64,000 nucleotides of DNA from Thermoplasmatota archaeon (lineage in GTDB: Archaea > Thermoplasmatota > Thermoplasmata > Thermoplasmatales > GCA-001856825): assembly GCA_023379555.1 (NCBI GenBank), contig JAMCQR010000065.1, forward strand, positions 1 to 64,000. The letters run 5' to 3'. Position numbers and translations under genes: made by a program. Shown one piece after another: positions 22,191-39,084 of this stretch. Positions within the stretch are counted from its first letter, which is position 1; every line of letters begins with the position of its first letter. Below the pieces are notes generated by a model that was not told the DNA's origin, did not search any database, and saw only the letters and a list, made by a program, of their open reading frames with translations.

Positions 22191-22572
22191 AATTAGTTCA
22201 AGAGCTCTATATGATAAAAAAGTTATGAACTCGTGATTTTCTAAAATTTCCTTTTTGCCTTAATTTTAAATGGTAAGTAACGTTATTGCAATAATCAAAT
22301 AAGGCATTCTAATATATTTATATTTCAGATAGATTTAATAACCTTTGCTGTTAAGTTAAAAATGTGGATAATTCGTCAGCGAAGGGCGATTATCCTTAAA
22401 GTTTGTGGGAGGAGCCTCCTGCATAAAACTATCATATGAGAAGGGATTATGGAAATAACCCAGACTGAAAAATTTCTCAATCCACTATTACGAAATTAGC
22501 GATGATCTAGAAGCGGATAAATAGACTATTCCCGGTAGTAATATTCAAAAACCAGAAAAGTATATCTTTTGA
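22191..22572. other. 382-base divergent intergenic region between aldehyde dehydrogenase and GH31 genes
   Basis: No gene is seen. It contains a near-palindrome AAGTAACGTTATT (22275-22287) that shares the AAGTAAC half-site found in the cluster before the RraA-like gene, a G/C-rich AGGAG-C-CTCCT element (22410-22420), and, near the GH31 start, the maltodextrin operator listed separately. Confidence 0.45.
22523..22541 (+). promoter_or_regulatory. Maltodextrin operator, copy 1 (upstream of GH31)
   Basis: The 19-base element AGACTAT-TCCCG-GTAGTAA has the inverted-repeat form TTACTAC-N5-GTAGTAA (four left-arm-versus-consensus differences counting the outer two bases, inner arms 9 of 10). It lies 31 bases before the GH31 ATG. 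Related copies stand before malE, between the MFS gene and malK, and at the GH57 start. Confidence 0.55.
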
Positions 22573-24867
22573 ATGCTAGATATTTCCCTTGATAAAAAGC
22601 TCCTTGATTTCGAGAAAATTTTTGGACTGGATATTGCCAAGGATTCTGTGGGTTATACAATCCTGAGGGATAATACGGACACGAAAAATCGGGTCCCTCT
22701 CGATAAACCTAACCCCATTGCCGGACCAGTCTCTGACTTCAAGGTTACTGGCAATTCAATACAGGTTTTTTTCAGGAATGGGTCTGCGGTCCTGTCCATT
22801 ACCCAGGAAGATACGGTCCATTTGTTCTGGACAACTGGAAATGGCCCTATAGTAGCAAATAACGATTATAGATTTGATGATGTTAAATTTGATACTGGCA
22901 AGCTGGTAGTTCTCTCCAAGGACATAAGAATTGAAATTTCAGATAGATTGGATTATTTTTACAGAAACGAACTATTAAGATCCGAGTTCCTTCCTGATCT
23001 TGGGTCGCCTTTAATCCTGAGAGCCAGAATTCGGGATGATAGCATAATTAATGGAACAGGAGAGCGCTCCTTCCCTCTCAACCTCAGGAACAGAAAACTC
23101 AGCCTCTGGAATCACGATGCCGATGGAAGCTATGGGGAAGGTGCAGATCCTCTTTACATAAACATCCCGATTCTTCTCGATGTAAGAAATGATTCATGTT
23201 ACTCAATATTTTTCAATAATTCCTCGAAGGCAGTTTTTGACTTATGTTCCAATGAAAAGGATATTGTAAGAACCGAATTTATGGGGGGAATTCTAGACTA
23301 TACGATAACCTTCGGGACCTTGAAGGATATTTCCAGACGGATGAGCGATATTCTAGGGAAAGCATTGCTTCCCCCAAAATGGGCTCTGGGATATCACCAG
23401 TCAAGGTACAGCTACAATTCACAGGAAGAAGTAGAGGAAGTTCTTGATAAGTTCCATGAAATGGGGCTTCCGCTGTCTGCCATATATCTGGACATAGATT
23501 ATATGGATGGTTACAAGGTCTTCACTTTAAACAAAGAAAAATTCCCTGACCTTAAGAGCTTGTCTGAAAAGATGGGCAGGAATGGAGTGAAACTGGTTGC
23601 CATTTTGGATCCGGGCGTTAAATGGGACACCAATTTCTCAGTTTATAAGGAGGGCATCAATGGAAGCTACTTTATCAAGGACCCGGAGGGGAATGTCATT
23701 AGAGGGCCGGTATGGCCCGGTAATGCCGCATTTCCTGATTTTTCAGATTCAAAAACTAGGGAATGGTGGGCCGGCAAATACACTTTTTTCAAGGAAAATG
23801 GCATAACGGGTGTCTGGCATGACATGAATGAACCTGCTATTTTCGTTTTCTGGGGCGATAATAGTCTTCCACTCATGGCGGTCCAGAAAGAAGGTTATCA
23901 TTATTTAGTCCATAACAAGTACGGGTTGCAGATGTCGATGGCAGGTTACGCCGGCCTTAGCAGACTTTCAGAGGAGAGACCGTTCATATTGAGCAGGTCA
24001 GGGTGGGCTGGAATCCAAAAATATGCATTTGTCTGGACAGGGGATACTGCTAGTTCATGGAAAGTACTGAAGCAGACTGTGCCCACAATCTTGAATCTCG
24101 GTTTATCTGGCATTCCTTTTAGTGGTGTTGATATCGGCGGTTTCAGTGGAAATCCTTCGGAGGAACTGTTTCTGAGATGGTTCGAACTTGGGTCGCTTCT
24201 CCCACTCTTCAGAAATCATTCAGCTAAGGGGACGAATAGACGTGAGCCATGGGTCTTCAGCAAAATGGGACAAGAAGTCATCAGAAAATATCTGAAACTA
24301 AGATATATGATGATACCATATTTCCTATCTGTCTCTTATGAGTCCCATACCTTAGGATACCCGTTTATCAGGCCAATAAACATGGAATTTCCTGACCATT
24401 ATTCTGATGAAACATTCATGATTGGTGGAAGTTTGCTGGCTGCCCCTATTTTAAGGAAGGGTTTAAAGAAGATCAGAATCACACTTCCAGAAGGCAAATG
24501 GTATTATTTCTGGGACGATACTATATGCGAAGGTTATGTAGATGTGAATGTGGAACTTGGGGATCTTCCATTGTTCGTGAGGGAAGGGTCGATCATTCCA
24601 TTAGATAGGGAAGGTAGAGAGTTTCACATTTATCCTGGGAATCTTGAGCGCTTTGTTTTTTACGACGATGATGGCAGGCAGAAGCCAACTTTCATCAAGA
24701 TGGAATTCAGAATGAAAGGAAGAAATGGTATTTTCACAGTGGAGTGGGCCTACGAAGGAAACTTGAATGACGGCCAAACAGAGCTAAAATTCGTTATACA
24801 CAGAGATGGTACCGAGAAAATAATCACGTCCAGGCTACAGGACAAGACCTTAACTTATACTCAATAA
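22573..24867 (+). CDS. Alpha-glucosidase, glycoside hydrolase family 31 (cytoplasmic)
   Basis: The enzyme releases glucose from the non-reducing ends of malto-oligosaccharides. The 764 residues match archaeal MalA-type GH31 enzymes. The order is an N-terminal beta-sandwich (about 1-250), the TIM barrel starting PPKWALGYHQSRYSY (about 267), the catalytic nucleophile Asp417 in GVWHDMNEPAIF, the acid/base Asp491 in VWTGDTASSW, and the RNHSAKGTNRREPW block with the conserved barrel His. C-terminal beta domains follow. There is no signal peptide, so it acts on imported oligosaccharides. It converges on the GH13 gene with an 18-base overlap of the 3' ends. A maltodextrin operator copy lies just upstream. 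Confidence 0.95.
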   Translation: MLDISLDKKLLDFEKIFGLDIAKDSVGYTILRDNTDTKNRVPLDKPNPIAGPVSDFKVTGNSIQVFFRNGSAVLSITQEDTVHLFWTTGNGPIVANNDYRFDDVKFDTGKLVVLSKDIRIEISDRLDYFYRNELLRSEFLPDLGSPLILRARIRDDSIINGTGERSFPLNLRNRKLSLWNHDADGSYGEGADPLYINIPILLDVRNDSCYSIFFNNSSKAVFDLCSNEKDIVRTEFMGGILDYTITFGTLKDISRRMSDILGKALLPPKWALGYHQSRYSYNSQEEVEEVLDKFHEMGLPLSAIYLDIDYMDGYKVFTLNKEKFPDLKSLSEKMGRNGVKLVAILDPGVKWDTNFSVYKEGINGSYFIKDPEGNVIRGPVWPGNAAFPDFSDSKTREWWAGKYTFFKENGITGVWHDMNEPAIFVFWGDNSLPLMAVQKEGYHYLVHNKYGLQMSMAGYAGLSRLSEERPFILSRSGWAGIQKYAFVWTGDTASSWKVLKQTVPTILNLGLSGIPFSGVDIGGFSGNPSEELFLRWFELGSLLPLFRNHSAKGTNRREPWVFSKMGQEVIRKYLKLRYMMIPYFLSVSYESHTLGYPFIRPINMEFPDHYSDETFMIGGSLLAAPILRKGLKKIRITLPEGKWYYFWDDTICEGYVDVNVELGDLPLFVREGSIIPLDREGREFHIYPGNLERFVFYDDDGRQKPTFIKMEFRMKGRNGIFTVEWAYEGNLNDGQTELKFVIHRDGTEKIITSRLQDKTLTYTQ

Positions 24868-26727
24868 TTCAAGAACAAAACCTTCTTTCTTGATGGAAAT
24901 TTCCCCTTTTCCTGTCCAGAAGTATTTCCTTCCTATCAGTACGGTACCAAGGATCTTGATGTGAATGTCGTCGTTACCAAAATAAAAGTTCAGACGTTGG
25001 TTCCTGGATATTTTGGAAATTCCTTGGATTCCTCTAGAATTCAGTTCAGTCAACATTCCGTATTTCATTATCTCATTATCTCTTCGCAGTGCTGTAAGTT
25101 TCTTAAAGAAATTTAAGGTTCTTGGATTCATTTTGTTCCACTGAAAAGTCCTTCTACAGTCCGGGTCTTTCCCACCCTCCATTCCTATTTCATCCCCGTA
25201 GTAAATTAGAGAATAACCGTTCATTATGAACAGAAAGGTATAGGCCATTAATGCAGCATCCAAATCTCCATTGAAATAAGTCCTTATCCTTTCTATATCG
25301 TGAGAACTTAGAAGATTCATACAATTATCTGCTTTCCTTCCATATATAAATAAGAACTCATGATAAGATTGAAGGAACTGCCTTACTGTTATTTTTTTAG
25401 CTATTAAAGAGAGCATCAGATCACGAAGGAAATAGTTCGTTATGCCGTCGTAGTAGCCATCAAAGGCATAAATCGGAGACGCACACCAAACCTCTCCTAT
25501 ATGCAGCACTTTTCTGTTCGACGACATCAGACTTTGAATGAACGCTTTTGGAAGTGAATTCCCCACATCATATCTTATTCCATCAATCTTGAATTCATTC
25601 ACCCAGTACTCCAGCACGTCCTTCAGATAGGTCGTGACGGCTCTGTTCCTCAGATTCAGTTTTGGAAGCATTCCATATCCCATAAAAGTCTCATATGAAG
25701 GAAATTCACCTTTACCCTTTACAAAGTCGAAATGTCCCTTGAATCTTTTGAAGACATCATTGTGAAAAATGTAAAAATTGAAGTAGCTACTTTCCCTCTT
25801 TTTCCGGAGGACATCCTTAAAGAACGGATGGTAGGTTGAGGTATGGTTGAAGACCATATCCATCATGATCTTGATTCTATTTTTATGCGCTTTTTCAACT
25901 AGCTCCTTAAAATTATTTTTTCCCCCCAGCATTGGGTCAATCTGGTAGTAATCGTCAACATCATAACGATGATTAGAATGACTCTTGAAGATGGGATTGA
26001 TGTATATGTATTCCACATTAAGCATCCTAAGATAGTCAAGCTTTTCTATTATACCCTTTAAATTTCCCCCGAAAAATGAATTAAATTTCGGGATTGAGTT
26101 CCAGTCAGTCAATATTTTATTTCTTTTATAAGCGGGTGTGAAGAATCTATCCGGAAAGATCTGGTAGATTATTTTCGATGCACTCTCTTTGACAGGGCTT
26201 TTGCGTCTTCCATTAATCTGAAAGATTTCATTATCAATTATAAGTGTGAATGCTTTTTTTTCCTCTTGAACAAAATAGTATATTAATCCGTATTTTCTCT
26301 CAATTTTCTCCACAGTGACATTTGCAGAATCTTCATGCTCCAGTTTAATGGTTATTGGTTTAGATGAATAAATAAAGTATATTACCATTCCTGCTGAAAA
26401 ATAACTTGACCTGATGCTAAAAAAATGGCCCTTACATTTCACCATTTTTCTAGTCTTTTTCCCTGAAGGACAATACTGGTTCCGGAATATTCTGTAATCA
26501 TAAATGCCTGGTGGAAGCAATAAATGTATCTTGAACCTGTTTTCTTCAGATAGAAATAAATTACCTTCTCCATTGCAATTTATAGTTCCCTCCGGGTAAA
26601 AGATGTCACTTTTTTGCGATATTTGGTTAGAAGTTACTGTTATCCTTCCTAAAGGCAACCTGTCCATCTCTCCCAACAACGTAGTATAGTATTCAATTAG
26701 ATAATACTGAGGGAAGATTCTTACCAA
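24850..26727 (-). CDS. Alpha-amylase family enzyme GH13 (neopullulanase/cyclomaltodextrinase-like, cytoplasmic)
   Basis: The 625 residues begin with an N-terminal domain of about 180 residues, as in cyclomaltodextrinases. The GH13 barrel follows: IIYQIFPDRFF (about 187-196), region I DMVFNHTS (290-297), region II GIRYDVGN with nucleophile Asp387, region III HIGEVW with acid/base Glu412, and region IV LLSSHDIERI with Asp477. IYYGDEIGMEGGKDPDCRRT is typical of neopullulanase/cyclomaltodextrinase. No signal peptide is seen, so it should debranch or cut imported maltodextrins to glucose and short products. It is divergent from the TrmB-family gene across a 64-base promoter region. Confidence 0.94.
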   Translation of the reverse strand: MVRIFPQYYLIEYYTTLLGEMDRLPLGRITVTSNQISQKSDIFYPEGTINCNGEGNLFLSEENRFKIHLLLPPGIYDYRIFRNQYCPSGKKTRKMVKCKGHFFSIRSSYFSAGMVIYFIYSSKPITIKLEHEDSANVTVEKIERKYGLIYYFVQEEKKAFTLIIDNEIFQINGRRKSPVKESASKIIYQIFPDRFFTPAYKRNKILTDWNSIPKFNSFFGGNLKGIIEKLDYLRMLNVEYIYINPIFKSHSNHRYDVDDYYQIDPMLGGKNNFKELVEKAHKNRIKIMMDMVFNHTSTYHPFFKDVLRKKRESSYFNFYIFHNDVFKRFKGHFDFVKGKGEFPSYETFMGYGMLPKLNLRNRAVTTYLKDVLEYWVNEFKIDGIRYDVGNSLPKAFIQSLMSSNRKVLHIGEVWCASPIYAFDGYYDGITNYFLRDLMLSLIAKKITVRQFLQSYHEFLFIYGRKADNCMNLLSSHDIERIRTYFNGDLDAALMAYTFLFIMNGYSLIYYGDEIGMEGGKDPDCRRTFQWNKMNPRTLNFFKKLTALRRDNEIMKYGMLTELNSRGIQGISKISRNQRLNFYFGNDDIHIKILGTVLIGRKYFWTGKGEISIKKEGFVLELLSIS

Positions 26728-26733
26728 TATGTG

Positions 26734-26749
26734 TATTCATGAGTGAATA
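26734..26749. promoter_or_regulatory. Inverted repeat in the GH13/TrmB divergent promoter
   Basis: TATTCA-TGAG-TGAATA is an exact inverted repeat in the 64-base gap between the divergent GH13 and TrmB-family genes, placed where either promoter could be blocked. It does not match the TTACTAC-N5-GTAGTAA element, so it may serve a different regulator or autoregulation. Confidence 0.4.
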
Positions 26750-26791
26750 TTTTGCAATAAGGTTAAATCGTCTTCAAATATAAACATACCA

Positions 26792-27802
26792 ATGCCTGAT
26801 GACATATTCAATGGGTTACAAAATTTCGGGTTATCTAATTATGAGATACGGGTATACAGGGCCCTTCTTCTGAGGGGGCCTCAGAATTCAACAGACGTTG
26901 TAAAAAACTCAGGCATACCGCAACCAAGAGTATATGATATCTTTAACAACTTGTTGCGAAAAGGTCTCGTAGAGAGCAGCAGGGTCGGAAAGAAGAAAAT
27001 TTTTAGAGCCGTTCCAGTCAAAAACGCTCTAGGGCATCATATTACTGAAATGACTGCATTTCTTGAGGAGCTTGATCACGTCGTTGCAGAGGAAACGAAG
27101 AACTCAAACATAAAAACTCCATCCATTTGGCTGATAGAAAATTCTGATAAGATTATAGAAAGGATGAAACAACTCATCACCGGAACAAAGAACGAGGTAA
27201 TCGCTTCGCTTGGAAAGGAAAGTCTTGAACAACTCATAAAAATTTTGAATAATGAGGCACGCCGTGGAATTACAATTGCCCTTGTCGTTTTCCCCGATAC
27301 TGGTGAAGACCTCATCTCCAGATTGAATCCCAATATAGTCATCAAAAAAAGAGGTGGCGTGGCATCAGAAGTGCTGATTTCAGACAGAAGCAAGGGAATT
27401 CTGAACGCGGAAAATGACAGCAAATTCAACTACGGCCTGTATTTCGAGGAAGATGAAATAATTCATATTCTGAATTATTACTTCTACCACACAATCTGGT
27501 GGCCCTCCAATTACATTACAGATTTTGCCAGTTCAAATACAAGACGGATATCGACAGCCTGGCTTACCTGCGAAGCAGTCTCTTCTTACAATAACAGGGG
27601 AATGAAGGTTTCCGGTAAACTTAGACTTAAAATTGGAGATGTAGAAAAGGATGTTTCTGGGGAAATTTCTAAAATATCAGTAATTCCTGGAATGAGCCAT
27701 ACTTTCTACCTTAGAACGAGATCAGAAAATATTTCCGTAGGTGGAAAGACTGCGCGATTTGAGGATGCTAAACTAATATGGGGACTTCTGGTGGCAAAAT
27801 AG
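26792..27802 (+). CDS. TrmB-family sugar-responsive transcription regulator
   Basis: The 336 residues have the TrmB layout. An N-terminal winged helix (GLSNYEIRVYRALLLRGPQN, then STDVVKNSGIPQPRVYDIFNN and a wing around GLVESSRVGKKKIFRAVP) is followed by a short coiled linker (about 80-100), then the C-terminal effector-binding domain (about 110-336). The family binds maltose, glucose or related sugars and controls sugar-uptake operons as repressor or dual regulator. It sits between the GH13 gene and the MalE-type operon, so it is the obvious regulator of the shared inverted repeat in this island. An AAGGTTAAA element lies about 25-33 bases upstream. Confidence 0.93.
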   Translation: MPDDIFNGLQNFGLSNYEIRVYRALLLRGPQNSTDVVKNSGIPQPRVYDIFNNLLRKGLVESSRVGKKKIFRAVPVKNALGHHITEMTAFLEELDHVVAEETKNSNIKTPSIWLIENSDKIIERMKQLITGTKNEVIASLGKESLEQLIKILNNEARRGITIALVVFPDTGEDLISRLNPNIVIKKRGGVASEVLISDRSKGILNAENDSKFNYGLYFEEDEIIHILNYYFYHTIWWPSNYITDFASSNTRRISTAWLTCEAVSSYNNRGMKVSGKLRLKIGDVEKDVSGEISKISVIPGMSHTFYLRTRSENISVGGKTARFEDAKLIWGLLVAK

Positions 27803-27809
27803 GACATAA

Positions 27810-27828
27810 CAACTACCATTCGTAGTAA
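27810..27828 (+). promoter_or_regulatory. Maltodextrin operator, copy 2 (upstream of malE-type gene)
   Basis: CAACTAC-CATTC-GTAGTAA carries an exact ACTAC-N5-GTAGT inverted repeat. It lies just upstream of a TATA-like GTTAAATATA (27831-27840), which itself stands 20-29 bases before the malE ATG. That position would let a bound regulator affect TFB/TBP binding. Confidence 0.65.
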
Positions 27829-27859
27829 ATGTTAAATATAGACATTTTAATATGTTTTC

Positions 27860-29311
27860 ATGACTTCTGATAGTCAGCAAATACCAGCTAAAAAGAAAAC
27901 TTCTCGGGGCATAATGTATGCGGTAATTATCGTGGTGGTCATAGTAATCATTGCCGCCGTGGCAATTGCACTAACTCTGCCTCACAAACCAACAACGACG
28001 ACAACACCTCCGGCCAGTAAGGTCACAATCACTGTATGGGGATCTGGAAGCGCAGGTGGGGAAGCACAAGCATTCAATGCTAGCCTGGCGTCATTTGAAG
28101 CTCAATATCCTAACATAACCATTAAGGATTCACCTGCAATAAACGTGGGTTCTACGACGTTCCCGACTGCTGCTCATGCGCACAATGCACCGGATGTTTA
28201 CAGGGATACGAGTGATAACGGAGGAGCACTGTATGCAGCAGGGCTTTTGCTCAATCTCACACCATACCTGAATTCCAGCTACATAAACTCATTCACGGCC
28301 GGAACTATAACGGACTGGAAACTTAATGGGGCACTGTATGGGATACCGGTGAATACGAACGGTATTGCTCTGTATTACGACAAGGCACTTGTACCGAACG
28401 GCGTAGCTCCATCCAATGTATGGCAAATGATTCAGGACGCACAGAACGTTACAGCTAAGGGATCAGGATATTACGGACTAGCCTATGGAATAGGAAATGA
28501 CTATGGGTACAGATTTGCAGCATGGTTCCCGGCATTCAATGGCGGAATTTTCAACTCCACACACTACCCTGTTGTCAACAGCAGTCAGGACATTGCAGCA
28601 ATGTCATTCGTCTGGAACTGGACTGTTAAATACCACGTCGACACAGTCGGGCTAACGTTCGCGGATGAACAGAGCCTTTTTGAATCCGGAAAGTCAGCGT
28701 TTATGCTTGACGGACCGTGGGATCAATCCACATACGCAAAGGCATTAGGATCAAACCTTGGCGTTGCTCCAATACCATTTAACAATGCAACTGGATTATG
28801 GCCAGAGCCTCTCTGGGGGTCCGTAGGGTACGTCATATCAAATTCCCAAGCAAGTGGTGCAAACTCCTCACAGATATGGGCATCTCTAAAATTCGTGGAA
28901 TTTATGACCAACAATAATTCCCAGGTACAGTTATTCAAACTGGCTGGCGACCTTCCATCGCTAAAATCCACCGGAAGCTACATTGAGACTCATAATTTCA
29001 ATGACACGGTGATTTCAGGATGGGTTGCCCAGGAAGCTCATACACAACTTTTCCCTAACTTCCCGCAAATGGCAGCATACTGGACGCCATTCCACACAGC
29101 TGCAACAAATCTGGAACAGAATTCATCGAAGGTCACTGTTACAGGGATTATGAACCAGATGGAATCACTAATAATTCAGACTCTAAATTCTGAAGGGATT
29201 CCGTTGACTGTGATACCGGCAAGCGCAACACCAGTACAAGCACCTAATTATGAATTGACACTGCTGCAAATGAGCTCTATATCGATCACGCCTAATATCG
29301 TAAAGCTTTAA
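27860..29311 (+). CDS. malE: Maltose/maltodextrin ABC transporter substrate-binding protein
   Basis: This is the extracellular solute-binding protein of a family 1 (MalE-like) carbohydrate importer, 483 residues. The N terminus has a basic stretch, a single anchor helix (GIMYAVIIVVVIVIIAAVAIAL), and a Thr/Pro linker that keeps the binding domain at the membrane. The binding domain begins VTITVWGSGSAGGEAQAFNA and carries the family's FMLDGPWDQSTYA block. It is directly followed by two permease genes and heads the operon. The exact sugar is inferred from context (GH13, GH31, GH57, TrmB). Confidence 0.9.
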   Translation: MTSDSQQIPAKKKTSRGIMYAVIIVVVIVIIAAVAIALTLPHKPTTTTTPPASKVTITVWGSGSAGGEAQAFNASLASFEAQYPNITIKDSPAINVGSTTFPTAAHAHNAPDVYRDTSDNGGALYAAGLLLNLTPYLNSSYINSFTAGTITDWKLNGALYGIPVNTNGIALYYDKALVPNGVAPSNVWQMIQDAQNVTAKGSGYYGLAYGIGNDYGYRFAAWFPAFNGGIFNSTHYPVVNSSQDIAAMSFVWNWTVKYHVDTVGLTFADEQSLFESGKSAFMLDGPWDQSTYAKALGSNLGVAPIPFNNATGLWPEPLWGSVGYVISNSQASGANSSQIWASLKFVEFMTNNNSQVQLFKLAGDLPSLKSTGSYIETHNFNDTVISGWVAQEAHTQLFPNFPQMAAYWTPFHTAATNLEQNSSKVTVTGIMNQMESLIIQTLNSEGIPLTVIPASATPVQAPNYELTLLQMSSISITPNIVKL

Positions 29312-29341
29312 TTTTTGATATTTTTCTTTTTTATTGTAGTG

Positions 29342-30235
29342 ATGAAAGTGGCCAATAAACTCAGGACCTGGAGTTTAAGATCGCTAATATTCATATTGCC
29401 AGTTATAGTGGTACTGATATTCCTGGATTTTTATCCAATAGCATATAGCATATATATGTCGTTCACTGATTTCGGAGAATTTCATTTCTTCAATTACACG
29501 TTTATTGGGCTTCAAAATTATGTTAGAATCGTTAAATCGGGCTTCCTCTGGACACTCCTTGAGCAGAATGCCATTTATGCGGTTGGAAGCGTAGCGTTGT
29601 TCGCCCCCCTTGGTTTCATCATCGCAATGGTGATGAGCCAGAGGGGACTGAGAGGTAAAACATTTTACAGAACTGCAATATTGTTCCCATGGGCTTACCC
29701 TGCCTTCATTACCATATTGATCTGGCAGGGGATGCTCGATTATAGATTTGGTATAGTGAATGAACTTCTTGAAAAGATTGGAATCAAGCCAATTTACTGG
29801 CTTGGAACTCCAGGGACTGCCATGTTTTCTATAATACTGGTAAATCTCTGGCTGTCATTTCCATATTATACGTATGTGTTTACTTCCGCAATGCAGAGCA
29901 TTCCCTCAGAACTATATGAGGCAGCAGAGATGGATGGATATGGCCCTCTTGGGAGACTGAGGACAATCATAATGCCGATGCTAAGCAGGCAGATAGCATT
30001 CGTTGTCATATTCGGATTCATTTTCACGTGGAACAATTTCTACATCCCATTCCTGTTGACAGGAGGTGGTCCAGGTACCTCCACCCAGATATTAATCACG
30101 TACAGCTACTATTCAGCGTTTTCATATTTGCAGTTCGGGATCGGTGCCGCTTATTCTGTCATATCAATTGCTGTTCTGCTTGTGATAGTCGTGATTGCAA
30201 ACCATTACTCAAAGATGATGACTGTGTTATATTGA
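29342..30235 (+). CDS. malF: Maltodextrin ABC transporter permease, MalF type
   Basis: The integral membrane subunit has about six helices. The coupling (EAA) loop that docks the ATPase is SELYEAAEMDGYGPLGRLRT followed by IIMPML. The frame can be read from TTG 29315, which adds only MIFFFFIVV. ATG 29342 gives a normal N terminus (MKVANKLRTWSLRSLIFILP) and is preferred. It lies about 30 bases after malE and 10 before the second permease. Confidence 0.92.
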   Translation: MKVANKLRTWSLRSLIFILPVIVVLIFLDFYPIAYSIYMSFTDFGEFHFFNYTFIGLQNYVRIVKSGFLWTLLEQNAIYAVGSVALFAPLGFIIAMVMSQRGLRGKTFYRTAILFPWAYPAFITILIWQGMLDYRFGIVNELLEKIGIKPIYWLGTPGTAMFSIILVNLWLSFPYYTYVFTSAMQSIPSELYEAAEMDGYGPLGRLRTIIMPMLSRQIAFVVIFGFIFTWNNFYIPFLLTGGGPGTSTQILITYSYYSAFSYLQFGIGAAYSVISIAVLLVIVVIANHYSKMMTVLY

Positions 30236-30245
30236 GGTGAAATAG

Positions 30246-31112
30246 ATGAAAAATAGCAAGGGAAGATACTACAGAAGAGTCAGGTTAGCCAAGAGGATAG
30301 TGTCCCACTTGTTTCTTATTCTGATTGTTATCTTTTCAATCTTTCCCATATATTACGTTCTGCTGATGTCCCTCTCACCTCTCTCCAATTTATCCCAGAT
30401 GAGCGTTGCCAAGCTTATTCCTAATCCTGCATACCTGACTATAGGCAACTATGCAGCAATTTTATTCCATTATCCTTTCTTGACATGGTTGAAGAATTCG
30501 CTTATATTCAGTGCAAGTGCCACCTTCATTGGAGTTCTGTTGGCAATTTCCTCCGGTCTGGCACTGTCCAGAATGAATATACCTCTCAGAAAGGTAATAC
30601 TCTACATGATGCTTATATTATCCCTGTTTCCGTTTGTCATAATGGTCATACCATTCTATTTCATGTTTTCTGAACTTGGACTGGTAAACACATATACCGG
30701 CCTGATAATTGCGTATTCTGCCGGGGCAGTAATATTTGCATCCTGGCTGATAAAGAATTATGTGGAAATGATCCCGAAGGATTTTGAGGAGGCTGCACAG
30801 ATAGATGGATATACCAGGACGGGAGCTCTGTTCAGGGTATTGCTCCCCATAGCCAGACCTGTGATCATATTTACGCTTGTCCTATCATTCATGGGCCCCT
30901 ACACTGACTATGCCCTTGCTGGACAACTATTGACGGATCCAAACATCTACACCATGGCAATCGGGATGTATTATGTTTCTCAGGGTACCGTATCAATGAA
31001 TTATGGGACATATTCCGCATTCGCAGTTCTGATGGGCGTGCCAATATTCCTGCTATTTTTCGCCTTCCAGAAGTACCTTGTTTCTGGTTTCAGTATCGCA
31101 ATGTATAAATGA
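30246..31112 (+). CDS. malG: Maltodextrin ABC transporter permease, MalG type
   Basis: The second permease subunit has 288 residues and six predicted helices. The EAA loop is PKDFEEAAQIDGYTRTGALF followed by RVLLPIARP. A GGTGA lies five to six bases before the ATG at 30246, a plausible ribosome binding site in the operon. Its 3' end overlaps the convergent MFS gene by 23 bases. The ATPase gene that completes the importer is displaced to 32409. Confidence 0.92.
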   Translation: MKNSKGRYYRRVRLAKRIVSHLFLILIVIFSIFPIYYVLLMSLSPLSNLSQMSVAKLIPNPAYLTIGNYAAILFHYPFLTWLKNSLIFSASATFIGVLLAISSGLALSRMNIPLRKVILYMMLILSLFPFVIMVIPFYFMFSELGLVNTYTGLIIAYSAGAVIFASWLIKNYVEMIPKDFEEAAQIDGYTRTGALFRVLLPIARPVIIFTLVLSFMGPYTDYALAGQLLTDPNIYTMAIGMYYVSQGTVSMNYGTYSAFAVLMGVPIFLLFFAFQKYLVSGFSIAMYK

Positions 31113-32319: not shown

Positions 32320-32332
32320 TATTTCTTATTGT

Positions 32333-32351
32333 TTACTACCAATCGTAATAA
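32333..32351 (+). promoter_or_regulatory. Maltodextrin operator, copy 3 (MFS/malK divergent promoter)
   Basis: TTACTAC-CAATC-GTAATAA matches TTACTAC-N5-GTAGTAA with one difference and is the best full-length copy. It lies 14-32 bases upstream of the MFS start codon, next to an A/T-rich TATA-like stretch, so it would directly cover that promoter. It is 58 bases from the malK GTG. Confidence 0.65.
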
Positions 32352-32408
32352 AATAATTGCGTTAATGAAAAAAATTAATAAGGTGTTTGCATATTCTAAA
32401 TTGATTAC

Positions 32409-33476
32409 GTGGCCACGATTTCCTTAGAAAAACTAACAAAGGATTATGGGAACCATAAAGGGGTCTTCGACCTTGACCTTACCATTGAATCTGGAGAATT
32501 TTTCGTAATACTGGGCCCGAGTGGCTGCGGTAAAACAACAACGCTTCGAATCATCGCAGGACTTGAATATCCAAATTCTGGAAAAGTATACTTGGATGAC
32601 GAAGATATAACTGATTACCCACCAAGAAATAGAAACATGTCAATGGTGTTCCAGAATTATGCCCTTTATCCATTCATGACAGTCAGGGAGAACATCTCCT
32701 TCCCGCTGAAAAAGATGAAAATGGATAAATCGGACATCGATAAGAAGGTAGATGATATGGCATCAGTCCTTTCCATAACAGACATCCTAGATAAGAAGCC
32801 CGGGCAGATTTCAGGAGGTCAGAGACAGAGGGTTGCCCTTGGAAGGGCGATCGTAAAGGAACCCAAAGTTTTCCTGATGGATGAACCATTGTCGAACCTT
32901 GACGCGAAATTGAGAATTGGAATGAGGGCAGAACTGAAAAGGATACAGATGGAACTCAAGACCACTACAGTTTATGTCACTCACGACCAGATAGAGGCAA
33001 TGACCCTTGCAGACAGGGTAGTTGTGATGAATAACGGCAATCTCGAACAACTGGACATGCCAATGAAGATATACGAAAAACCCGCAAATTCTTTCATCGC
33101 ATCATTTCTGGGCGACCCCCCCATTAATTTCCTTGAAGCGGAATTAGCAAAGGAAGGAGAAAATACATTCCTCATTATTGGAGACAACAGGATTATTCTA
33201 AACAGAAACATCGGAAATTATGTTGGCAAGGTTGTCAAGGTAGGTATCAGACCCGAAGACATCAGGATTTCTAATAGCGGGATCAGATCAAAGATAACAT
33301 TTATCCAGCCACTTGGAAGAAGAAGACTGGAGCATTTCAAAATTGCCGCGAATGGAACGGAATTAATCAGAGCATCCAGTGCTGAACAAACGCTCAACGT
33401 GGGAGATGAATGCTTCATTGATTTCAACAATGAAAAAATATTATTATTCAATAAGGAAAATGGAAAAATAATTTAA
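32409..33476 (+). CDS. malK: Maltodextrin ABC transporter ATP-binding protein, MalK type
   Basis: The ATPase subunit has 355 residues. Walker A is GPSGCGKTT (about 36-44), the Q-loop is MVFQNYALYP, the signature is ISGGQRQRVALGRA (Ile in place of the usual Leu), Walker B and D-loop are VFLMDEPLSNLDAKL, and the switch His is in YVTHDQIEAMTL. A C-terminal MalK/UgpC-type regulatory OB domain follows (KVGIRPEDIRI). The start is GTG. It lies apart from malEFG, separated by the antisense MFS gene, but completes that importer. Confidence 0.94.
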   Translation: MATISLEKLTKDYGNHKGVFDLDLTIESGEFFVILGPSGCGKTTTLRIIAGLEYPNSGKVYLDDEDITDYPPRNRNMSMVFQNYALYPFMTVRENISFPLKKMKMDKSDIDKKVDDMASVLSITDILDKKPGQISGGQRQRVALGRAIVKEPKVFLMDEPLSNLDAKLRIGMRAELKRIQMELKTTTVYVTHDQIEAMTLADRVVVMNNGNLEQLDMPMKIYEKPANSFIASFLGDPPINFLEAELAKEGENTFLIIGDNRIILNRNIGNYVGKVVKVGIRPEDIRISNSGIRSKITFIQPLGRRRLEHFKIAANGTELIRASSAEQTLNVGDECFIDFNNEKILLFNKENGKII

Positions 33477-33480
33477 AAAA

Positions 33481-36400
33481 TTATATCTTTCTTTTTCTGG
33501 TAACATAAATTGCCAGTAGGAGCAATAGAATTATCACCACAATAATTCCCGTTATGTAGTAATACAAGTAAGAAGGCGTTGGTGCAGTTTTTGTAATTAT
33601 TGGTGTCTCTGTAAAGCTTATACCTGACTTAAGTTCCCATACGGAGTATTCTGTCTGCCCCTTTTGAAGCCATGAAATGAAAACGGTATAATTAGAACCT
33701 GACTGAGAAAGGAGAATTGATGATTCCAGAATGGGGCTGGAACTTGAAACGATCGTATAATGCTTGTATATGATGAAAGAACCATTCAGCGTCAGATTTG
33801 CCAGCTTGAGATAGAATTGATTGCTTTCAAGCGAAATATAGGAAATCCAGAGGTTTCCGTACGAATTCACTGATATACTAAAGTTCCCTTCGATTCCAGT
33901 AAAGTTTCCATTCACCTTAAATGGCTCTACAGATCCCTTTGCTGCAACAAACCCATCCACTGAACTCCCATTGTAGTAAATTAAGTACTCCCTGCCATTG
34001 TAGAAGGCGCCATTGATACCAGACGTACCATTCCCGATAATGTATGAGTTCAAGGTTCCACTGGTTACATTATACATTAACAATGTATACTGGTAAAGCT
34101 TGCCTGCATTTGGACCTGAGTAGAAAGTCATGAAAATTTGGTTTCCTTGGCCACTGAAAACATTTCCAATCTTTCCATAGTAATGGTTTATGCTCTTCAG
34201 GACTTTGATGGCTCCGCTTGCAGGATTCAGTTGTATTATGTATATTGTACCACCAATTATTTCCGCCCCTGATATGATGTTTCCAGATGAGGTTACTGAT
34301 ACTTGCGATATGCCATTTGTACCAGCTACCATTCCTTGATAATTCCAAATTTTTCCGTCGCTCGATTCTGCCAAATACATGTTATTGACGCCAGTCCGGT
34401 TCGATATGAATAGTTCGAAGTACTGGTCCCCAACCTTTAGCAGATTCAGATTCGTATAATTCGAGTAATTGAATTGTACTGCCGAAACTGTTGAATTTTT
34501 AAGAAGCGGAAGGCTGATCGGATAAAGGGTTGCTAGCTGATGAGGGGCATACTGGAGCGCACTCTGCTGAGTAATGTTTCCTTCTCCAACCGTTGCTGGA
34601 GCGATGTATGCGTATATGTTCGAACTCCAAGGTGGGTCTCCACCGCCGCCCTGCCATCCTCCATTGGTTGTGTTCACTGCATCGACGATCCTCCATCCAT
34701 TTACTCCATAACCATCATACGAGCCTGAAATTATTATGTAACTGTAATCTTCTATGTTGTAACCAATGTATGACAGTGGAATGGAGACGCTTATGTTTCC
34801 AGTCGTATAATTGACGGAAGAAGATATTCCATTAGTGTATTGATCCCCCTTATAGTTCTGGACATAGATTGCCCATCCTGAAATATATATCATGGATTGC
34901 CAAGGTGCGCTTGAGTTCGCATTTGGACCTGCACCAAGATAAGTTGCTCCAGGAAGATTCTTCTGCGAAACGTAAACGGATATGATCTGGTTGCTGAAAC
35001 CAATGGGTCCTCCCCATATGTTCCAGAGCTGGCCATAAGTGAAATTCCATTTGACAAAATTTGAATTCATAGAGACATTGACCCATTTCAGATCCAGAGA
35101 CCCCGGAGGTATCTGTCCGGGCTGATCAGGATAAGTATAGTTTCCAGGTCCGTTCGGAGGAACAGTATTGTGGATTGAAGATATGGGATAAAAGGTAGCA
35201 AGTGATGTCGGAAGTGATACTGATATTGGTGACAGCATTGAGTTGCCATTGGTGCCATTGTAAATTTCGAGTCCAATTTTGAATGACTGGCCTGGGTAAA
35301 GCTGTAAGTAAGTGAGAGGTATTGCTAGCTGGATGACGTTACCTATAACTACTGGAGTATTCACATCCTGTGACTGGAATTCCAGTGTGTTCAACCCCGT
35401 GGCCGCGTATAGCGAATACTCCCCTGATAGTGAACCAGACTGGAAGGTGTAAGGGTTGAATTCAGCAACGTAACTGGCAGGGAATCCTAAGGCATAATTC
35501 CCTTGAAGCGCAGCGTATATCGCAAATGGATTATCGTTGGCCACTGACGCCGGCAGTTCTGGATTGGCCGCAGAGATGTAAACATCCAGATTCATATTTC
35601 TATTCACGAGCAGATATTGAGGGTTGAATGTTGTCTGGATTTCAAGATACAAATTGGATGGATCGTATGCTATGGAAAGATTTCGTATATATTGTGAATT
35701 TGACGTATATATCGTTGCCCCGGACCACGTGTTATTGTTGGTTATTGAGAATGCATTTCCATAATTTGTGCCCTGTACTGCCTGCTGGTACCCAGTAAGT
35801 TGTGGTGTATGGGAAGCATTCATATTACCGGTTACTGTTGGGGCAATAGATGGATAACTGTTATTCAGAAGGAACTGGGGAACTGGAATTCCAAGCTGGT
35901 CCAAGCTGTAAATGAGATTGTGCTTGAAAATATAGTCGAATGGTGCAGTGTTCGAACCACTTATGTCCCACGGTGCGGTCGTGAAGAACCAATCGCTCCC
36001 TTCATCTGCGTATATACCGAACCATGCTCTTGAATAATTACCCATGATGTCATTTGTCTTCAGGTACTCTTCCATGGTCGTATAATTTATTACTTGCTGA
36101 ATGCCATGACTGTTCCCATAGTTCAAAACCTCCTGCCTGACAAAATTAAGTGCTACCCAGTAGAAATCCTGTACCTGATAACCGGACCATTGTTCAAGAC
36201 TTGGATTGCTCTGGTACGGAGCCGCCGATCCTGTCCCTCTATTCCAGGAACCAGTTGCCACATGGGCTATTACTGGGGCAGTCATGTTGTTAGATTTCAT
36301 GAACTGTATGTATTGACTGGGAGTCACTGTTCTTACATAGGATGAATTCTGTTCCAGAGCTGAATAAAGCTGCTGCAGGAACGGGACTCCGTCCATTGCG

Positions 36401-39078
36401 AAAGGCGACATAAACATCCAATTTTCCCCATCCAGCATAACAGTCACCACTGTTCCATTATGATCCTGGGCCGGTATCTCCGCATAGATCCCCTTCAGAT
36501 AATTCATGAAAGCAGAAACTGCGGCCGCGGTGCCCATTGAGCCATAATTGAATCCCCACGCATTTGAAAGATACCCATCCCTGAAGAAGACGTAAATTGA
36601 GCTGTTGTTCTGCCCGGAAACCAGGTACGGCCTGTAAAGATTTTCCATCGTAGTAACGTTTGACCCTGCGTTCCCGTAAGCTAGCGCATTGACCCCGGAC
36701 TGCTGCAGTGTCCATTCTGCCGAAGCTGTCCATTGACCTCCTTCGGATGCATAAGGCTGGACCATGCCGTATGAAAATGCCGCCTCCGGTGAATAGATGC
36801 CACTTGGCCAGAAACCAAACATGGAATGGAACTGCCCCAAACTGATATTCAGCTGTGCCAGGAGATCAGTGTAGTATGACTGTTTATAGATGGTTCCAGA
36901 AGGGCCGGATATGTTATTCGCAAGGAGCAATGGAACCAGAGGATGGAACATAGGACTCGTAAACAGTTCCACGTTCCTGCTGCCATTCTGGCTATTCATG
37001 GAATCGTTTTTGAATGCGTTGATTACCTGTCCGGTAAGCCACTTAGAATAAGCAAGAATCTCGTTAAGATCATTTTGACTGAATGAGGTCTGGTTATGCA
37101 TTGACCAAATAGTACTGTTAATCCACTGCCGACCCAACTGTCCCTCAACCAGGGGAGTGCTTATGTCGAACAGGAACCAGAGAACTTTGGCATCCTCATA
37201 ATAGCTCTCATTCAGAATCTGTCCAGATAACCACATATTCCTGATATGATTGTACAGCATTGAAGCAGGTTCGCTCAGAGAGAAAACATATCCCGGTATG
37301 CTGAAATAATAACCAACGATGGTATTGTATAGACTCTTGTTTTCAATTACCTGTGAATACGGTAGATATGAGTACTGGATGACAGTATTGTTGTAGTTCG
37401 GATCTGCTGATATATTCTGCAGCTGATATAGCAATGATCCGGACAGCTGATAAGTTATGTTTACGTTGTAATCATGAGCTATCAGTGCCTGCTCAATGTA
37501 TTCTGCAGTTGCATGAACTTCCGTCCATGGCAAATTATAATCGCTTGAGTTGACAACAGTGTATAGTGGCTGATGATCATTGAAAATTATAGCGAGATTT
37601 ATCGGGTTATATGGTGCATGGACTGTTGATGTTACCTTCAGCCCGGTTATGTTAAGATTGATTGTGTTATTTACGACGAAATATACATTTCCCGTGCTGT
37701 ACGGTCCCTGCTGGTCATACGGGATTCCAGTACCTACCCAGGATCCAGATCCCCCTATCACAAGAGCAGCCACCGAAAGATTCAGCGATGAAGTGCCAGG
37801 GCTCAGTATCTGATTGACGGGAATGGAGATTTCCGTGGTCAGATTTGATACGTTGAAATCCCAGGTTGACCTAACTATCGTTGCTTGGGGAGCCGTATTG
37901 CTATCGCTCTGTTTGGAATTTATAATGAATGAATTGTTGCCGCTTGTTTGGCCGGAGCCCGAAAAGTAAACGGCCGAAAAATAGTTTACTGGATCAACAA
38001 AAGATATGTTCCTGCTCCACGTGTTCAAAGAGGAAAAGTTGTAGGTACCCAGACCTGAATTTGTATTATTTGACATTGCCAACAGAAGCGAATTTCCAAG
38101 TATGTCTTCCTTGAAACCGAAAAACAAGGTGGTTGAATTATATGCAAAATACATATCTGATATGTTATTCGTGTTTCCCCATTTTGAGCTGTTATAATTG
38201 TAATAAATCAAGTGCCCGGAAAAATCATTTGAGACATTTCCCGTGAACTGTATGTTTCCGTAATACTTGCCTACCGTGCGCGTCTTCTGATTGTACGTTA
38301 TGTTGTTGATTTTTAGTTCCTCGCTGACGACAAAATAGGTGCTTCCTTTGCTGTATGGCCCAGTCTGGTCATATGGAATGGCCGTCCCTACCCATGAACT
38401 CGAACCCCCGATCAGCAAGGCTGCTATACCTATGGATTCAGTTCCACTGTTATTTGAGAATATGGATTGCAAAGGTATCGCAATTTCGGTTGAATTATAA
38501 ATCGAACTGATGTCCCATAAAGACCTTATTTGAACCGCATAAGGAGTTGAATTGCTGGCTGTTATTTTGGAAGTGATTTGATACGAGCTATTGCCGCTTA
38601 CCTGTGTATTTCCGCTACCGCCATACCAAACTGCAGAAAATTCATTAATGGGTGAGGAGAAAGATATGGATCTCTGCCATGTATTGAGGTTGGTAATATT
38701 AGTTGTACCTTGACTCGAGTTAGTTTCATTTGAAATTACTACCATGAGTCCATTATCGGATATGGTTTCCTGAACTCCGACAAACAGGTATGACGAATTG
38801 AAAGATACGTACAGGGCCGAAATATTGTTGCCGGATCCCCAGAAGGAGGCGTTATCGTTGACGTAAATCAGATGGCCCGCAAAATCCTTTGCAACATTGC
38901 CCGTAAACGAGACATTTGCCTCAGTTGCGCCGATTGCGGGAACAGGGTTAGCTGATTGTGGAGTGACCGCACCCGTTGCAGATGAAATTGCGTAAAACGA
39001 AGATATTAAAGTTATTGCTGCTAAAATGATTGAGAGAGCTTTGATTTTCAATTTATGAGTTTTGTTTACTACTCTCAT
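33481..39078 (-). CDS. Cell-surface glycoside hydrolase family 57 (amylopullulanase-like) with duplicated N-terminal domain
   Basis: The product has 1865 residues. A signal peptide (about 10-33) is followed by two tandem homologous domains (about 54-252 and 274-470; shared blocks include FTGNV..DFxGHLIY, LNTW.R.ISF, SWVGT.IPYDQ.GPYS and G..YFVV). The GH57 catalytic region starts INLAIIFNDHQPLY (about 493-506). The likely nucleophile is Glu765 in YSPEAAFS and the likely acid/base is Asp883 in VMLDGENW. Later come carbohydrate-binding-like beta domains (about 1130-1550) and a C-terminal beta-repeat region. A single helix (YITGIIVVIILLLLLAIYV) and KRKI anchor it to the membrane. It should cut starch or pullulan outside the cell and feed the MalEFGK importer. 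The start overlaps an operator copy. Confidence 0.88.
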   Translation of the reverse strand: MRVVNKTHKLKIKALSIILAAITLISSFYAISSATGAVTPQSANPVPAIGATEANVSFTGNVAKDFAGHLIYVNDNASFWGSGNNISALYVSFNSSYLFVGVQETISDNGLMVVISNETNSSQGTTNITNLNTWQRSISFSSPINEFSAVWYGGSGNTQVSGNSSYQITSKITASNSTPYAVQIRSLWDISSIYNSTEIAIPLQSIFSNNSGTESIGIAALLIGGSSSWVGTAIPYDQTGPYSKGSTYFVVSEELKINNITYNQKTRTVGKYYGNIQFTGNVSNDFSGHLIYYNYNSSKWGNTNNISDMYFAYNSTTLFFGFKEDILGNSLLLAMSNNTNSGLGTYNFSSLNTWSRNISFVDPVNYFSAVYFSGSGQTSGNNSFIINSKQSDSNTAPQATIVRSTWDFNVSNLTTEISIPVNQILSPGTSSLNLSVAALVIGGSGSWVGTGIPYDQQGPYSTGNVYFVVNNTINLNITGLKVTSTVHAPYNPINLAIIFNDHQPLYTVVNSSDYNLPWTEVHATAEYIEQALIAHDYNVNITYQLSGSLLYQLQNISADPNYNNTVIQYSYLPYSQVIENKSLYNTIVGYYFSIPGYVFSLSEPASMLYNHIRNMWLSGQILNESYYEDAKVLWFLFDISTPLVEGQLGRQWINSTIWSMHNQTSFSQNDLNEILAYSKWLTGQVINAFKNDSMNSQNGSRNVELFTSPMFHPLVPLLLANNISGPSGTIYKQSYYTDLLAQLNISLGQFHSMFGFWPSGIYSPEAAFSYGMVQPYASEGGQWTASAEWTLQQSGVNALAYGNAGSNVTTMENLYRPYLVSGQNNSSIYVFFRDGYLSNAWGFNYGSMGTAAAVSAFMNYLKGIYAEIPAQDHNGTVVTVMLDGENWMFMSPFAMDGVPFLQQLYSALEQNSSYVRTVTPSQYIQFMKSNNMTAPVIAHVATGSWNRGTGSAAPYQSNPSLEQWSGYQVQDFYWVALNFVRQEVLNYGNSHGIQQVINYTTMEEYLKTNDIMGNYSRAWFGIYADEGSDWFFTTAPWDISGSNTAPFDYIFKHNLIYSLDQLGIPVPQFLLNNSYPSIAPTVTGNMNASHTPQLTGYQQAVQGTNYGNAFSITNNNTWSGATIYTSNSQYIRNLSIAYDPSNLYLEIQTTFNPQYLLVNRNMNLDVYISAANPELPASVANDNPFAIYAALQGNYALGFPASYVAEFNPYTFQSGSLSGEYSLYAATGLNTLEFQSQDVNTPVVIGNVIQLAIPLTYLQLYPGQSFKIGLEIYNGTNGNSMLSPISVSLPTSLATFYPISSIHNTVPPNGPGNYTYPDQPGQIPPGSLDLKWVNVSMNSNFVKWNFTYGQLWNIWGGPIGFSNQIISVYVSQKNLPGATYLGAGPNANSSAPWQSMIYISGWAIYVQNYKGDQYTNGISSSVNYTTGNISVSIPLSYIGYNIEDYSYIIISGSYDGYGVNGWRIVDAVNTTNGGWQGGGGDPPWSSNIYAYIAPATVGEGNITQQSALQYAPHQLATLYPISLPLLKNSTVSAVQFNYSNYTNLNLLKVGDQYFELFISNRTGVNNMYLAESSDGKIWNYQGMVAGTNGISQVSVTSSGNIISGAEIIGGTIYIIQLNPASGAIKVLKSINHYYGKIGNVFSGQGNQIFMTFYSGPNAGKLYQYTLLMYNVTSGTLNSYIIGNGTSGINGAFYNGREYLIYYNGSSVDGFVAAKGSVEPFKVNGNFTGIEGNFSISVNSYGNLWISYISLESNQFYLKLANLTLNGSFIIYKHYTIVSSSSPILESSILLSQSGSNYTVFISWLQKGQTEYSVWELKSGISFTETPIITKTAPTPSYLYYYITGIIVVIILLLLLAIYVTRKRKI

Positions 39079-39084
39079 AAGTAA
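39066..39084 (+). promoter_or_regulatory. Maltodextrin operator, copy 4 (GH57 start)
   Basis: TTACTAC-TCTCA-TAAGTAA matches the left arm of the shared element exactly and the right arm in five of seven bases. It covers the GH57 start codon (39076-39078). A TATA-like AATATACATTAAT lies about 10-25 bases upstream on the minus strand, so a bound protein would sit over the transcription start of a leaderless message. This is the weakest of the four copies. Confidence 0.45.

What the first reader, a model, noticed from the sequence alone, without database searches (positions are those of the whole stretch)
22523..39084. Shared inverted repeat TTACTAC-N5-GTAGTAA marks a maltodextrin regulon
Four sites share one form: AGACTAT-TCCCG-GTAGTAA (22523, before GH31), CAACTAC-CATTC-GTAGTAA (27810, before malE), TTACTAC-CAATC-GTAATAA (32333, MFS/malK promoter) and TTACTAC-TCTCA-TAAGTAA (39066, on the GH57 start). 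All stand in promoters of genes with one purpose and the TrmB-family gene lies between them. The 5-base spacer equals that of the Thermococcales glycolytic motif (TATCAC-N5-GTGATA, from memory), but the arms differ, so this would be a lineage-specific operator. The GH13/TrmB promoter lacks it and has a different palindrome, which suggests a second control layer.
Basis: partly seen in the sequence, partly recalled or inferred. Interest (0 to 1): 0.78.

Follow-up and report, generated by a model that had tools for sequence, protein, structure and literature searches.

The report
Shared switch for archaeal maltodextrin genes
A short mirror-image DNA sequence sits at the control regions of the starch-sugar genes of an archaeon related to Thermoplasma, and of its kin in several genera, and is most likely where a sugar-sensing TrmB protein binds; its place relative to the promoter changes from gene to gene and genus to genus, which challenges the usual rule for how such proteins switch genes on or off.

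Summary
Relatives give the full form W-TACYAC-T-N3-A-GTRGTA-W. In 22 other genomes, sites with at most 2 mismatches occur at 20/22 malE, 10/10 GH57, 11/15 GH31 and 13/19 malK regions; with rows that I had left out, 21/23, 10/11, 11/15 and 13/23. Of 109 regions, 68 match at spacing N5, 0 at N4, 3 at N6.

The likely binder is the TrmB-family protein at 26792-27802: a homologue lies within about 12 kb of malE in 18 of 21 genomes with malE. Binding is untested.

New here: the operator's place relative to the predicted BRE/TATA box varies. It abuts the BRE (malE and GH31 in the window), lies 13-26 bp upstream of TATA (malK), or lies at the start codon (GH57; malE in other genera). In some genomes malE has it at the start and malK upstream of TATA, though both should serve one transporter. 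That conflicts with the published rule that operator position sets the sign of TrmB action.

The parts
22523..22541 (+). operator AGACTAT-TCCCG-GTAGTAA of GH31; right arm overlaps the predicted BRE, 3 bp before the TATA core
   Evidence: same sequence in G001; matching site in L055, L057, L059, L063, L065, L069
22536..22549 (+). predicted BRE/TATA of GH31 (TAGTAATATTCAAA)
   Evidence: matrix learned from 255 upstream regions applied; prediction only
22573..24867 (+). GH31 alpha-glucosidase-type gene
   Evidence: Pfam PF01055, PF21365, PF13802
24850..26727 (-). GH13 alpha-amylase-type gene; no operator match at its promoter
   Evidence: Pfam PF00128; no match there
26792..27802 (+). TrmB-family regulator, presumed binder of the operator
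   Evidence: Pfam PF01978 and PF11495; homologue linked to malE in 18 of 21 genomes; G318 and E324
27810..27828 (+). operator CAACTAC-CATTC-GTAGTAA of malE; right arm overlaps the predicted BRE, 3 bp before the TATA core
   Evidence: kept in L055 and L057 at the same gap to TATA
27823..27836 (+). predicted BRE/TATA of malE (TAGTAAATGTTAAA)
   Evidence: prediction only
27860..29311 (+). malE, maltodextrin-type solute-binding protein
   Evidence: Pfam PF13416; similarity below cut-off to NCBIfam MalE and GanS
29315..30235 (+). malF permease
   Evidence: Pfam PF00528
30246..31112 (+). malG permease
   Evidence: Pfam PF00528
31090..32319 (-). MFS transporter sharing the operator at 32333
   Evidence: Pfam PF07690
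32333..32351 (.). operator TTACTAC-CAATC-GTAATAA shared by the divergent MFS gene (just after its predicted TATA) and malK (23 bp upstream of its predicted TATA)
   Evidence: kept in L055 and L057
32366..32379 (+). predicted BRE/TATA of malK (TGAAAAAAATTAAT)
   Evidence: prediction only
32409..33476 (+). malK, ABC ATPase
   Evidence: Pfam PF00005, PF17912, PF08402
33481..39078 (-). GH57 enzyme with glucodextranase-type C-terminal module (1865 aa)
   Evidence: Pfam PF03065, PF09985
39066..39084 (.). operator TTACTAC-TCTCA-TAAGTAA covering the GH57 start codon
   Evidence: matching site at the GH57 start in L056 and L058; weakest of the four by matrix
39101..39114 (-). predicted BRE/TATA of GH57 (GGAAATCCGTAAAT), upstream of the operator
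   Evidence: prediction only, low score (3.9)

Best explanation
The repeat is the binding site of the TrmB-family protein encoded at 26792-27802, which controls maltodextrin uptake and breakdown as one regulon: GH31, malEFG, malK, the MFS gene and the GH57 enzyme. A TrmB dimer would place one winged helix on each TACYAC half-site. Shown by sequence: the operator, its conserved arms and fixed spacing, its tie to these genes and to a TrmB gene across genera, and its position relative to predicted BRE/TATA boxes. Inferred: without maltodextrin, TrmB blocks TFB/TBP where the site overlaps the BRE (malE, GH31) and blocks RNA polymerase where it lies at the start (GH57, MFS); sugar in the TrmB pocket relieves this. 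At malK, where the site lies 13-26 bp upstream of TATA, TrmB more likely helps recruit TFB/TBP; how this gives the same direction of response as at malE is the open step.
For: Conservation: in a hand list of 109 regions of 22 genomes other than the window, sites with at most 2 mismatches occur at MalE 20/22, GH57 10/10, GH31 11/15, MalK 13/19, MFS 6/12, GH13 6/15, TrmB 2/16. Twelve labelled rows had been left out (genes at short contig ends, further copies, G101, GH57 of G012 that directly follows GH31, a broken TrmB); only malE of G101 among them has a site, so with them the counts are MalE 21/23, GH57 10/11, MalK 13/23, GH13 6/20, TrmB 2/17. Spacing: 68 of 109 at N5, 0 at N4, 3 at N6; 28 at N2 and at N8, shifts of 3 bases. 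Half-site: 59 of 109 for TACTAC against at most 15 for the 89 other permutations at N5; over other spacings the highest are shifted readings such as ACTACT-N3, 46. Genome scale: 48 distinct places with at most 1 mismatch in 12 genomes, 13 at mal-cluster promoters; by my estimate these clusters are about 1.3% of the DNA, binomial about 4e-14. Exact matches in 117 genomes of the order: 20 places, 7 at malE starts. Link to TrmB: 18 of 21 malE genomes have a homologue at E <= 1e-30 on the malE contig within about 12 kb, one of them with an internal stop. In two genomes of another family without malE, exact sites lie within 1 kb of a short TrmB-like gene. The protein has both TrmB domains and matches P. 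furiosus TrmB 3qph over residues 2-169.
Against: No binding or expression data exist for this protein. TrmB promoter regions rarely carry the site (2/17). GH13 and MFS have it in half or fewer of the regions. G032, which has a mal cluster, shows none of its 7 places at 1 mismatch there, only sites at 2. malK sites of G002, G012 and G007 are weak (2 mismatches). TrmB homologues of other genera have the same recognition helix (PQPR[VI]YD) whether or not malE is near; of 12 such loci scanned, 3 have no match at 2 mismatches and 9 have 1-5, of which I followed up only the PEP synthase one. The repression/activation split is inferred from position alone.
Confidence: 0.75

Rival explanations
1. The sites are bound by another regulator, not by the linked TrmB protein; the operator and the regulon are real but the assignment is wrong.
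For: TrmB homologues with a near-identical recognition helix occur in genera without a malE homologue; the TrmB gene's own promoter region mostly lacks the site.
Against: 18 of 21 malE genomes carry a TrmB homologue close to malE; exact sites also lie near distantly related short TrmB-like genes in G024 and G017; the half-site core TACT is that of characterised TrmB proteins.
Confidence: 0.12
2. Pure repressor model: TrmB represses at all three positions, by blocking TFB at the BRE, RNA polymerase at the start, and by an unknown means at malK; no activation.
For: One direction for all genes of one pathway; P. furiosus TrmB represses malE from a site over BRE/TATA (PMC4158304 and PMC4706686 passages). 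At malE and GH31 of the window and at 12 promoters of relatives the operator's right arm overlaps the predicted BRE, gap 3 bp to TATA.
Against: malK sites lie 13-26 bp before the predicted TATA core in 13 of 14 promoters listed (L105: 37, or 23 by its second candidate), too far to cover it. Several gaps (3, 12-15, 23-24) fall near one helical face, as an activator would need, but this is weak.
Confidence: 0.35
3. Pure activator model: sugar-bound TrmB activates all genes, as MalR of Sulfolobus activates its maltose regulon; sites at start codons are secondary.
For: Upstream sites at malE, GH31 and malK in the window; MalR is a TrmB-family activator (PMC4158304 passages).
Against: Sites at the start codon recur in GH57 of f1 and g13 and in malE of g2, g22 and g13, a position reported to repress.
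Confidence: 0.1
4. Chance or AT-rich promoter composition.
For: Individual sites have up to 3 mismatches; 39066 is not significant by matrix score alone.
Against: Spacing and permutation controls, and recurrence at the same genes in other genera.
Confidence: 0.01

Closest known systems
TrmB of Pyrococcus furiosus / Thermococcus litoralis and its TACT-N3-AGTA operator (trehalose/maltose operon)
   Same: TrmB-family regulator beside malE; TACT/AGTA half-site core; site touching the BRE at malE; G-x5-E in the sugar domain
   Different: 9 bases between TACT and AGTA here instead of 3; regulator below the NCBIfam TrmB cut-off (73.9 against 600 bits)
TrmBL1 / Tgr and the Thermococcales glycolytic motif TATCAC-N5-GTGATA
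   Same: 6-5-6 layout of 17 bases; sites on either side of TATA in one regulon
   Different: arms TACYAC, not TATCAC (TATCAC matched 4 of 109 regions against 59 for TACTAC); the targets found here are mainly maltodextrin genes; below the TrmBL1 cut-off (76.4 against 650 bits)
Halobacterium salinarum TrmB (VNG1451C), TACT-N7-8-GAGTA
   Same: with N8 the TACT and AGTA parts have the same 9-base separation; best NCBIfam score is to the haloarchaeal TrmB model (83.2 bits)
   Different: the G of GAGTA is T here; that protein is described for gluconeogenesis and other pathways, not a mal cluster; cut-off 500 bits not reached
MalR of Sulfolobus acidocaldarius
   Same: TrmB-family control of a maltose regulon
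   Different: described as an activator with two ATAATACT repeats; I did not search for such repeats here

Membership tests
TrmB family of archaeal regulators | N-terminal TrmB winged helix-turn-helix (PF01978) | tested here: met
   74.2 bits, cut-off 25.6, residues 9-76
TrmB family of archaeal regulators | C-terminal sugar-binding domain (PF11495) | tested here: met
   147.9 bits, cut-off 22.2, residues 112-327
TrmB family of archaeal regulators | sugar-pocket G and E (G320, E326 of P. furiosus TrmB) | tested here: inconclusive
   G318 and E324 with the same spacing, kept in all 16 mal-linked homologues aligned; equated by spacing, since the alignment to 3qph ends at residue 169
TrmB family of archaeal regulators | binds its operator and a sugar | not testable with these tools
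   needs protein
NCBIfam TrmB / TrmBL1 / haloarchaeal TrmB equivalogs | score above the curated cut-off | tested here: not met
   73.9/600, 76.4/650, 83.2/500 bits: same family, not a member of these named subgroups
Thermococcales glycolytic motif | arms TATCAC/GTGATA | tested here: not met
   4 of 109 regions against 59 for TACTAC
Thermococcales glycolytic motif | 5-base spacer between 6-base arms | tested here: met
   68 of 109 at N5, 0-28 at the other spacings from 0 to 12
P. furiosus TrmB operator TACT-N3-AGTA | 3 bases between TACT and AGTA | tested here: not met
   9 bases in the consensus of 52 sites
Halobacterium TrmB motif TACT-N7-8-GAGTA | spacing and GAGTA | tested here: inconclusive
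   spacing fits N8, but the G position is T in 93% of 52 sites pooled on both strands

The most novel reading that the evidence does not exclude
One TrmB gives the same direction of sugar response from operators on opposite sides of the TATA box, so the rule 'upstream activates, downstream represses' fails in this lineage. For example the protein may stay on DNA in both states, repressing without sugar and activating with it. The operator has then moved between BRE-abutting, far-upstream and start-codon positions at homologous genes while the output stayed constant.
Probability: 0.35. Interest if true: 0.72.

Novelty: new variant of a known kind. Interest (0 to 1): 0.52.

Why it matters
It assigns a maltodextrin regulon and its operator to a branch of the Thermoplasmata for which the listings of my library searches showed no described TrmB operator (the library lacks most subscription journals). 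It also gives a natural test of how TrmB sets the sign of regulation. In genomes G002, G012, G007 and G097, malE carries the operator at its start and malK carries one about 23 bp upstream of its predicted TATA, yet both should encode parts of one transporter. G097 is the clearest case; the malK sites of the other three have 2 mismatches. The published rule, tested in P. furiosus for TrmBL1 (PMC4706686 passages) and restated in PMC10817205 (passages), would have malE and malK move in opposite directions.

Tried and rejected
Second palindrome at GH13/TrmB: rejected as a signal. Inverted repeats with 6-base arms are common (149 in the window) and the same gap of L055 has none.

Site 18820-18838 before the RraA-like gene, and 15006 and 47088 inside open frames: probably chance; no sugar link found.

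Sites with 2 mismatches elsewhere in G001: one inside an ornithine-cyclodeaminase-like gene (my reading of the translation), one between a Fur-like regulator and a peroxiredoxin, more likely a Fur/PerR box (both namings recalled). G001 cannot test the mal sites beyond GH31: its contig ends inside GH13, and it has no malE hit and no full-length TrmB hit.

Helical phasing of upstream sites: kept only as a hint. With 15 hand-picked gene-by-genus gaps, R = 0.72 (p 0.0002 against uniform gaps), but these are not independent; with the gap-3 cases counted once (10 values), p = 0.043. I set malE of g16/g31/g27b to 12.5 from L100, L101 and the second candidate of L102. The best-scoring TATA calls of L103, L105 and L110 give 29, 28 and 26, and malK of L105 gives 37; I left these four out, and they would weaken the result.

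PEP synthase: a site with 2 mismatches abutting the BRE stands before this gene in 7 of the 14 genomes that have it and is absent in the other 7. and alignment A1 are wrong for 8 of the 14, because loci on the minus strand had not been turned; one search replaces them.

Start positions are those of the longest open frames, so the scanned regions (-150 to +75) are approximate. L113's 'malE' (G034) is a 519-aa gene in the malE place with no tblastn hit to malE and no NCBIfam match.
Full report
Observation. The four inverted repeats are present as written. In the 64-kb window, TTACTAC-N5-GTAGTAA with up to 3 mismatches occurs 7 times against 1.84 expected; 0 of 100 shuffles reached 7. Pfam confirms the maltodextrin cluster and the TrmB gene.

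Conservation. The window's own assembly is not held, and in the nearest genome, G001, the contig ends inside GH13. The closest complete cluster is G004 (JAGDXO010000008.1, Thermoplasmata archaeon KMA_Bin17; TrmB 79% identical). There all four sites are kept at the same genes: AACTAT-TATTG-GTAGTA at GH31, AACTAC-CAATT-GTAGTA at malE, TACTAC-CAGCC-GTAATA at MFS/malK, and TACTCATGAGAGTAGTA over the GH57 start. The spacer differs from the window's in the first three; at GH57 it is the same. I then fetched mal clusters from the 21 genomes of the order with a malE homologue at E <= 1e-40 plus G013 and G034. The 109 regions come from 22 of these genomes. Sites with at most 2 mismatches: MalE 20/22, GH57 10/10, MalK 13/19, GH31 11/15, MFS 6/12, GH13 6/15, TrmB 2/16. 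The list was made by hand and left out 12 labelled rows, besides malF, malG and second pieces of split frames; with those 12, MalE 21/23, GH57 10/11, MalK 13/23, GH13 6/20, TrmB 2/17. Spacing 5 matches 68 of 109 regions; spacings 4 and 6 match 0 and 3; spacings 2 and 8, shifts of 3 bases, match 28 each. Among all 90 permutations of the half-site letters at N5, TACTAC matches 59 and the next best 15. Pooling 52 distinct sites on both strands gives W-T-A-C-[TC]-A-[CT]-T-NNN-A-[GA]-T-[AG]-G-T-A-W, with the three central bases free.

Specificity. In 12 genomes, TACTAC-N5-GTRGTA with at most 1 mismatch has 48 distinct places; 13 lie at promoters of the mal cluster, which by my estimate is about 1.3% of the DNA; the binomial chance is about 4e-14. 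This count includes three genomes that add none of the 13: G001 and G013, where malE was not found, and G032, whose mal sites have 2 mismatches. One of the 13 (G034) precedes a gene in the malE place without a malE or NCBIfam match. Exact matches in 117 genomes of the order number 20 places: 7 at malE starts, 3 within 1 kb of short TrmB-like genes, 10 elsewhere, 4 of these one shared 17-mer in G025 and G043.

Regulator. The 26792-27802 protein has both TrmB domains, aligns with P. furiosus TrmB 3qph over residues 2-169, and has G318 and E324, spaced as the sugar-pocket G320 and E326 listed for P. furiosus TrmB; all 16 mal-linked homologues aligned keep this pair. A homologue at E <= 1e-30 lies on the malE contig within about 12 kb in 18 of 21 genomes; that of G096 has an internal stop. 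The others are G075 (different contigs), G098 and G101 (none listed; assemblies 63% and 50% complete). It scores far below the NCBIfam cut-offs for TrmB, TrmBL1 and haloarchaeal TrmB, so it is a TrmB-family protein outside those named subgroups.

Position. An expectation-maximisation search of 255 upstream regions found a BRE/TATA-like motif whose start peaks 36-39 bases before the start codon (about 0.41 of the weight), as expected for leaderless genes. Applied to the mal promoters, it gives three arrangements. (i) Operator 3 bp from the TATA core, its right arm lying in the BRE: malE in the window, L055, L057, L099 and the malE-place gene of L113; GH31 in the window, L055, L059, L063, L065, L069, L099; GH57 in L103 and L104 (5 bp in L102). 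(ii) Operator further upstream: malK 13-26 bp in 13 of 14 listed promoters (L105: 37, or 23 by its second candidate); malE in L100 and L101 (12-13), L102 (12 by its second candidate, the first overlaps), L103, L105 and L110 (26-29); GH57 in L048 and L097 (15); GH31 in L057 (12). (iii) Operator at the start codon: GH57 in the window, L056, L058, L061, L062, L108; malE in L059, L063, L069, L048, L096, L097, L106-L108. The MFS site in the window and L055 lies just after its TATA; GH31 of L096 and L097 overlaps TATA. In seven malE genes printed the operator lies inside the first codons (for example ATG-GAT-ACT-ACT-CAA-GGT-GGT), with T in the third position of the four operator codons in all seven. 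These are predicted boxes, not mapped starts.

Mechanism. In Thermococcales and Halobacterium the reported rule is that a TrmB-type site before BRE/TATA activates and a site after TATA represses (passages of PMC4158304; PMC4706686; PMC10817205), with P. furiosus TrmB at malE a repressor on a site over BRE/TATA. Sites of kind (i) and (iii) fit repression that sugar relieves. Kind (ii), as at malK, fits activation. As malE and malK should belong to one transporter, and G002, G012, G007 and G097 have malE of kind (iii) and malK of kind (ii), either the rule does not hold here or TrmB acts in two DNA-bound states. A caveat: the malK sites of G002, G012 and G007 have 2 mismatches; that of G097 has 1. 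I favour repression at BRE and start sites with assistance at malK (confidence 0.75 for the regulon and its TrmB; the sign at each promoter is less certain). Upstream gaps cluster near one helical face, but this is a hint only (see Tried and rejected).

Known work. The listings of the library searches (one search listed 15 of 100 papers) showed no paper describing a TrmB operator or maltodextrin regulon in Thermoplasmata. I read passages of five papers and only listings of the rest, so an earlier account cannot be excluded. The operator is a new variant of the TrmB type: outer TACT...AGTA as in TrmB, layout as in the glycolytic motif, separation as in the N8 form of the Halobacterium motif.

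Noticed in passing
L047:7534, 9676; L111:9995: In two genomes of another family (G024, G017) exact TACTAC-N5-GTRGTA sites lie within 1 kb of a short TrmB-like gene and before a cluster with a pair of sulfite-reductase-type genes (in G024 dsrB above its NCBIfam cut-off, dsrA below) and, in G024, genes with Pfam domains as in dsrM/dsrK: possibly a TrmB-family regulon for sulfur metabolism with the same operator.
   Followed up: partly
L115-L121, operator start 46 bases before the PEP synthase start: In 7 of 14 genomes with this PEP synthase a site like TATYAT-N5-GTAGTA abuts the BRE; none of the 14 has a malE hit at E <= 1e-40, and in 6 of the 7 a TrmB homologue lies within about 5 kb. A gluconeogenic target, as for TrmBL1/Tgr.
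   Followed up: partly
   Followed up: yes
window 18820-18838: TTACTAAATTATGTAATAT, a 3-mismatch match about 84 bases before an RraA-like gene (18922).
   Followed up: partly
L002:1501-1519 (G001): TAACTAC-AGTCA-ATAGTAA between a Fur-like regulator and a peroxiredoxin gene (namings recalled); probably a Fur/PerR-type site that resembles the operator by chance.
   Followed up: no
L109 (G101): The mal cluster of G101 is broken into short open frames (malE in two pieces, malG in two), yet operator-like sites remain at malE and elsewhere: a decaying cluster or a poor assembly.
   Followed up: no
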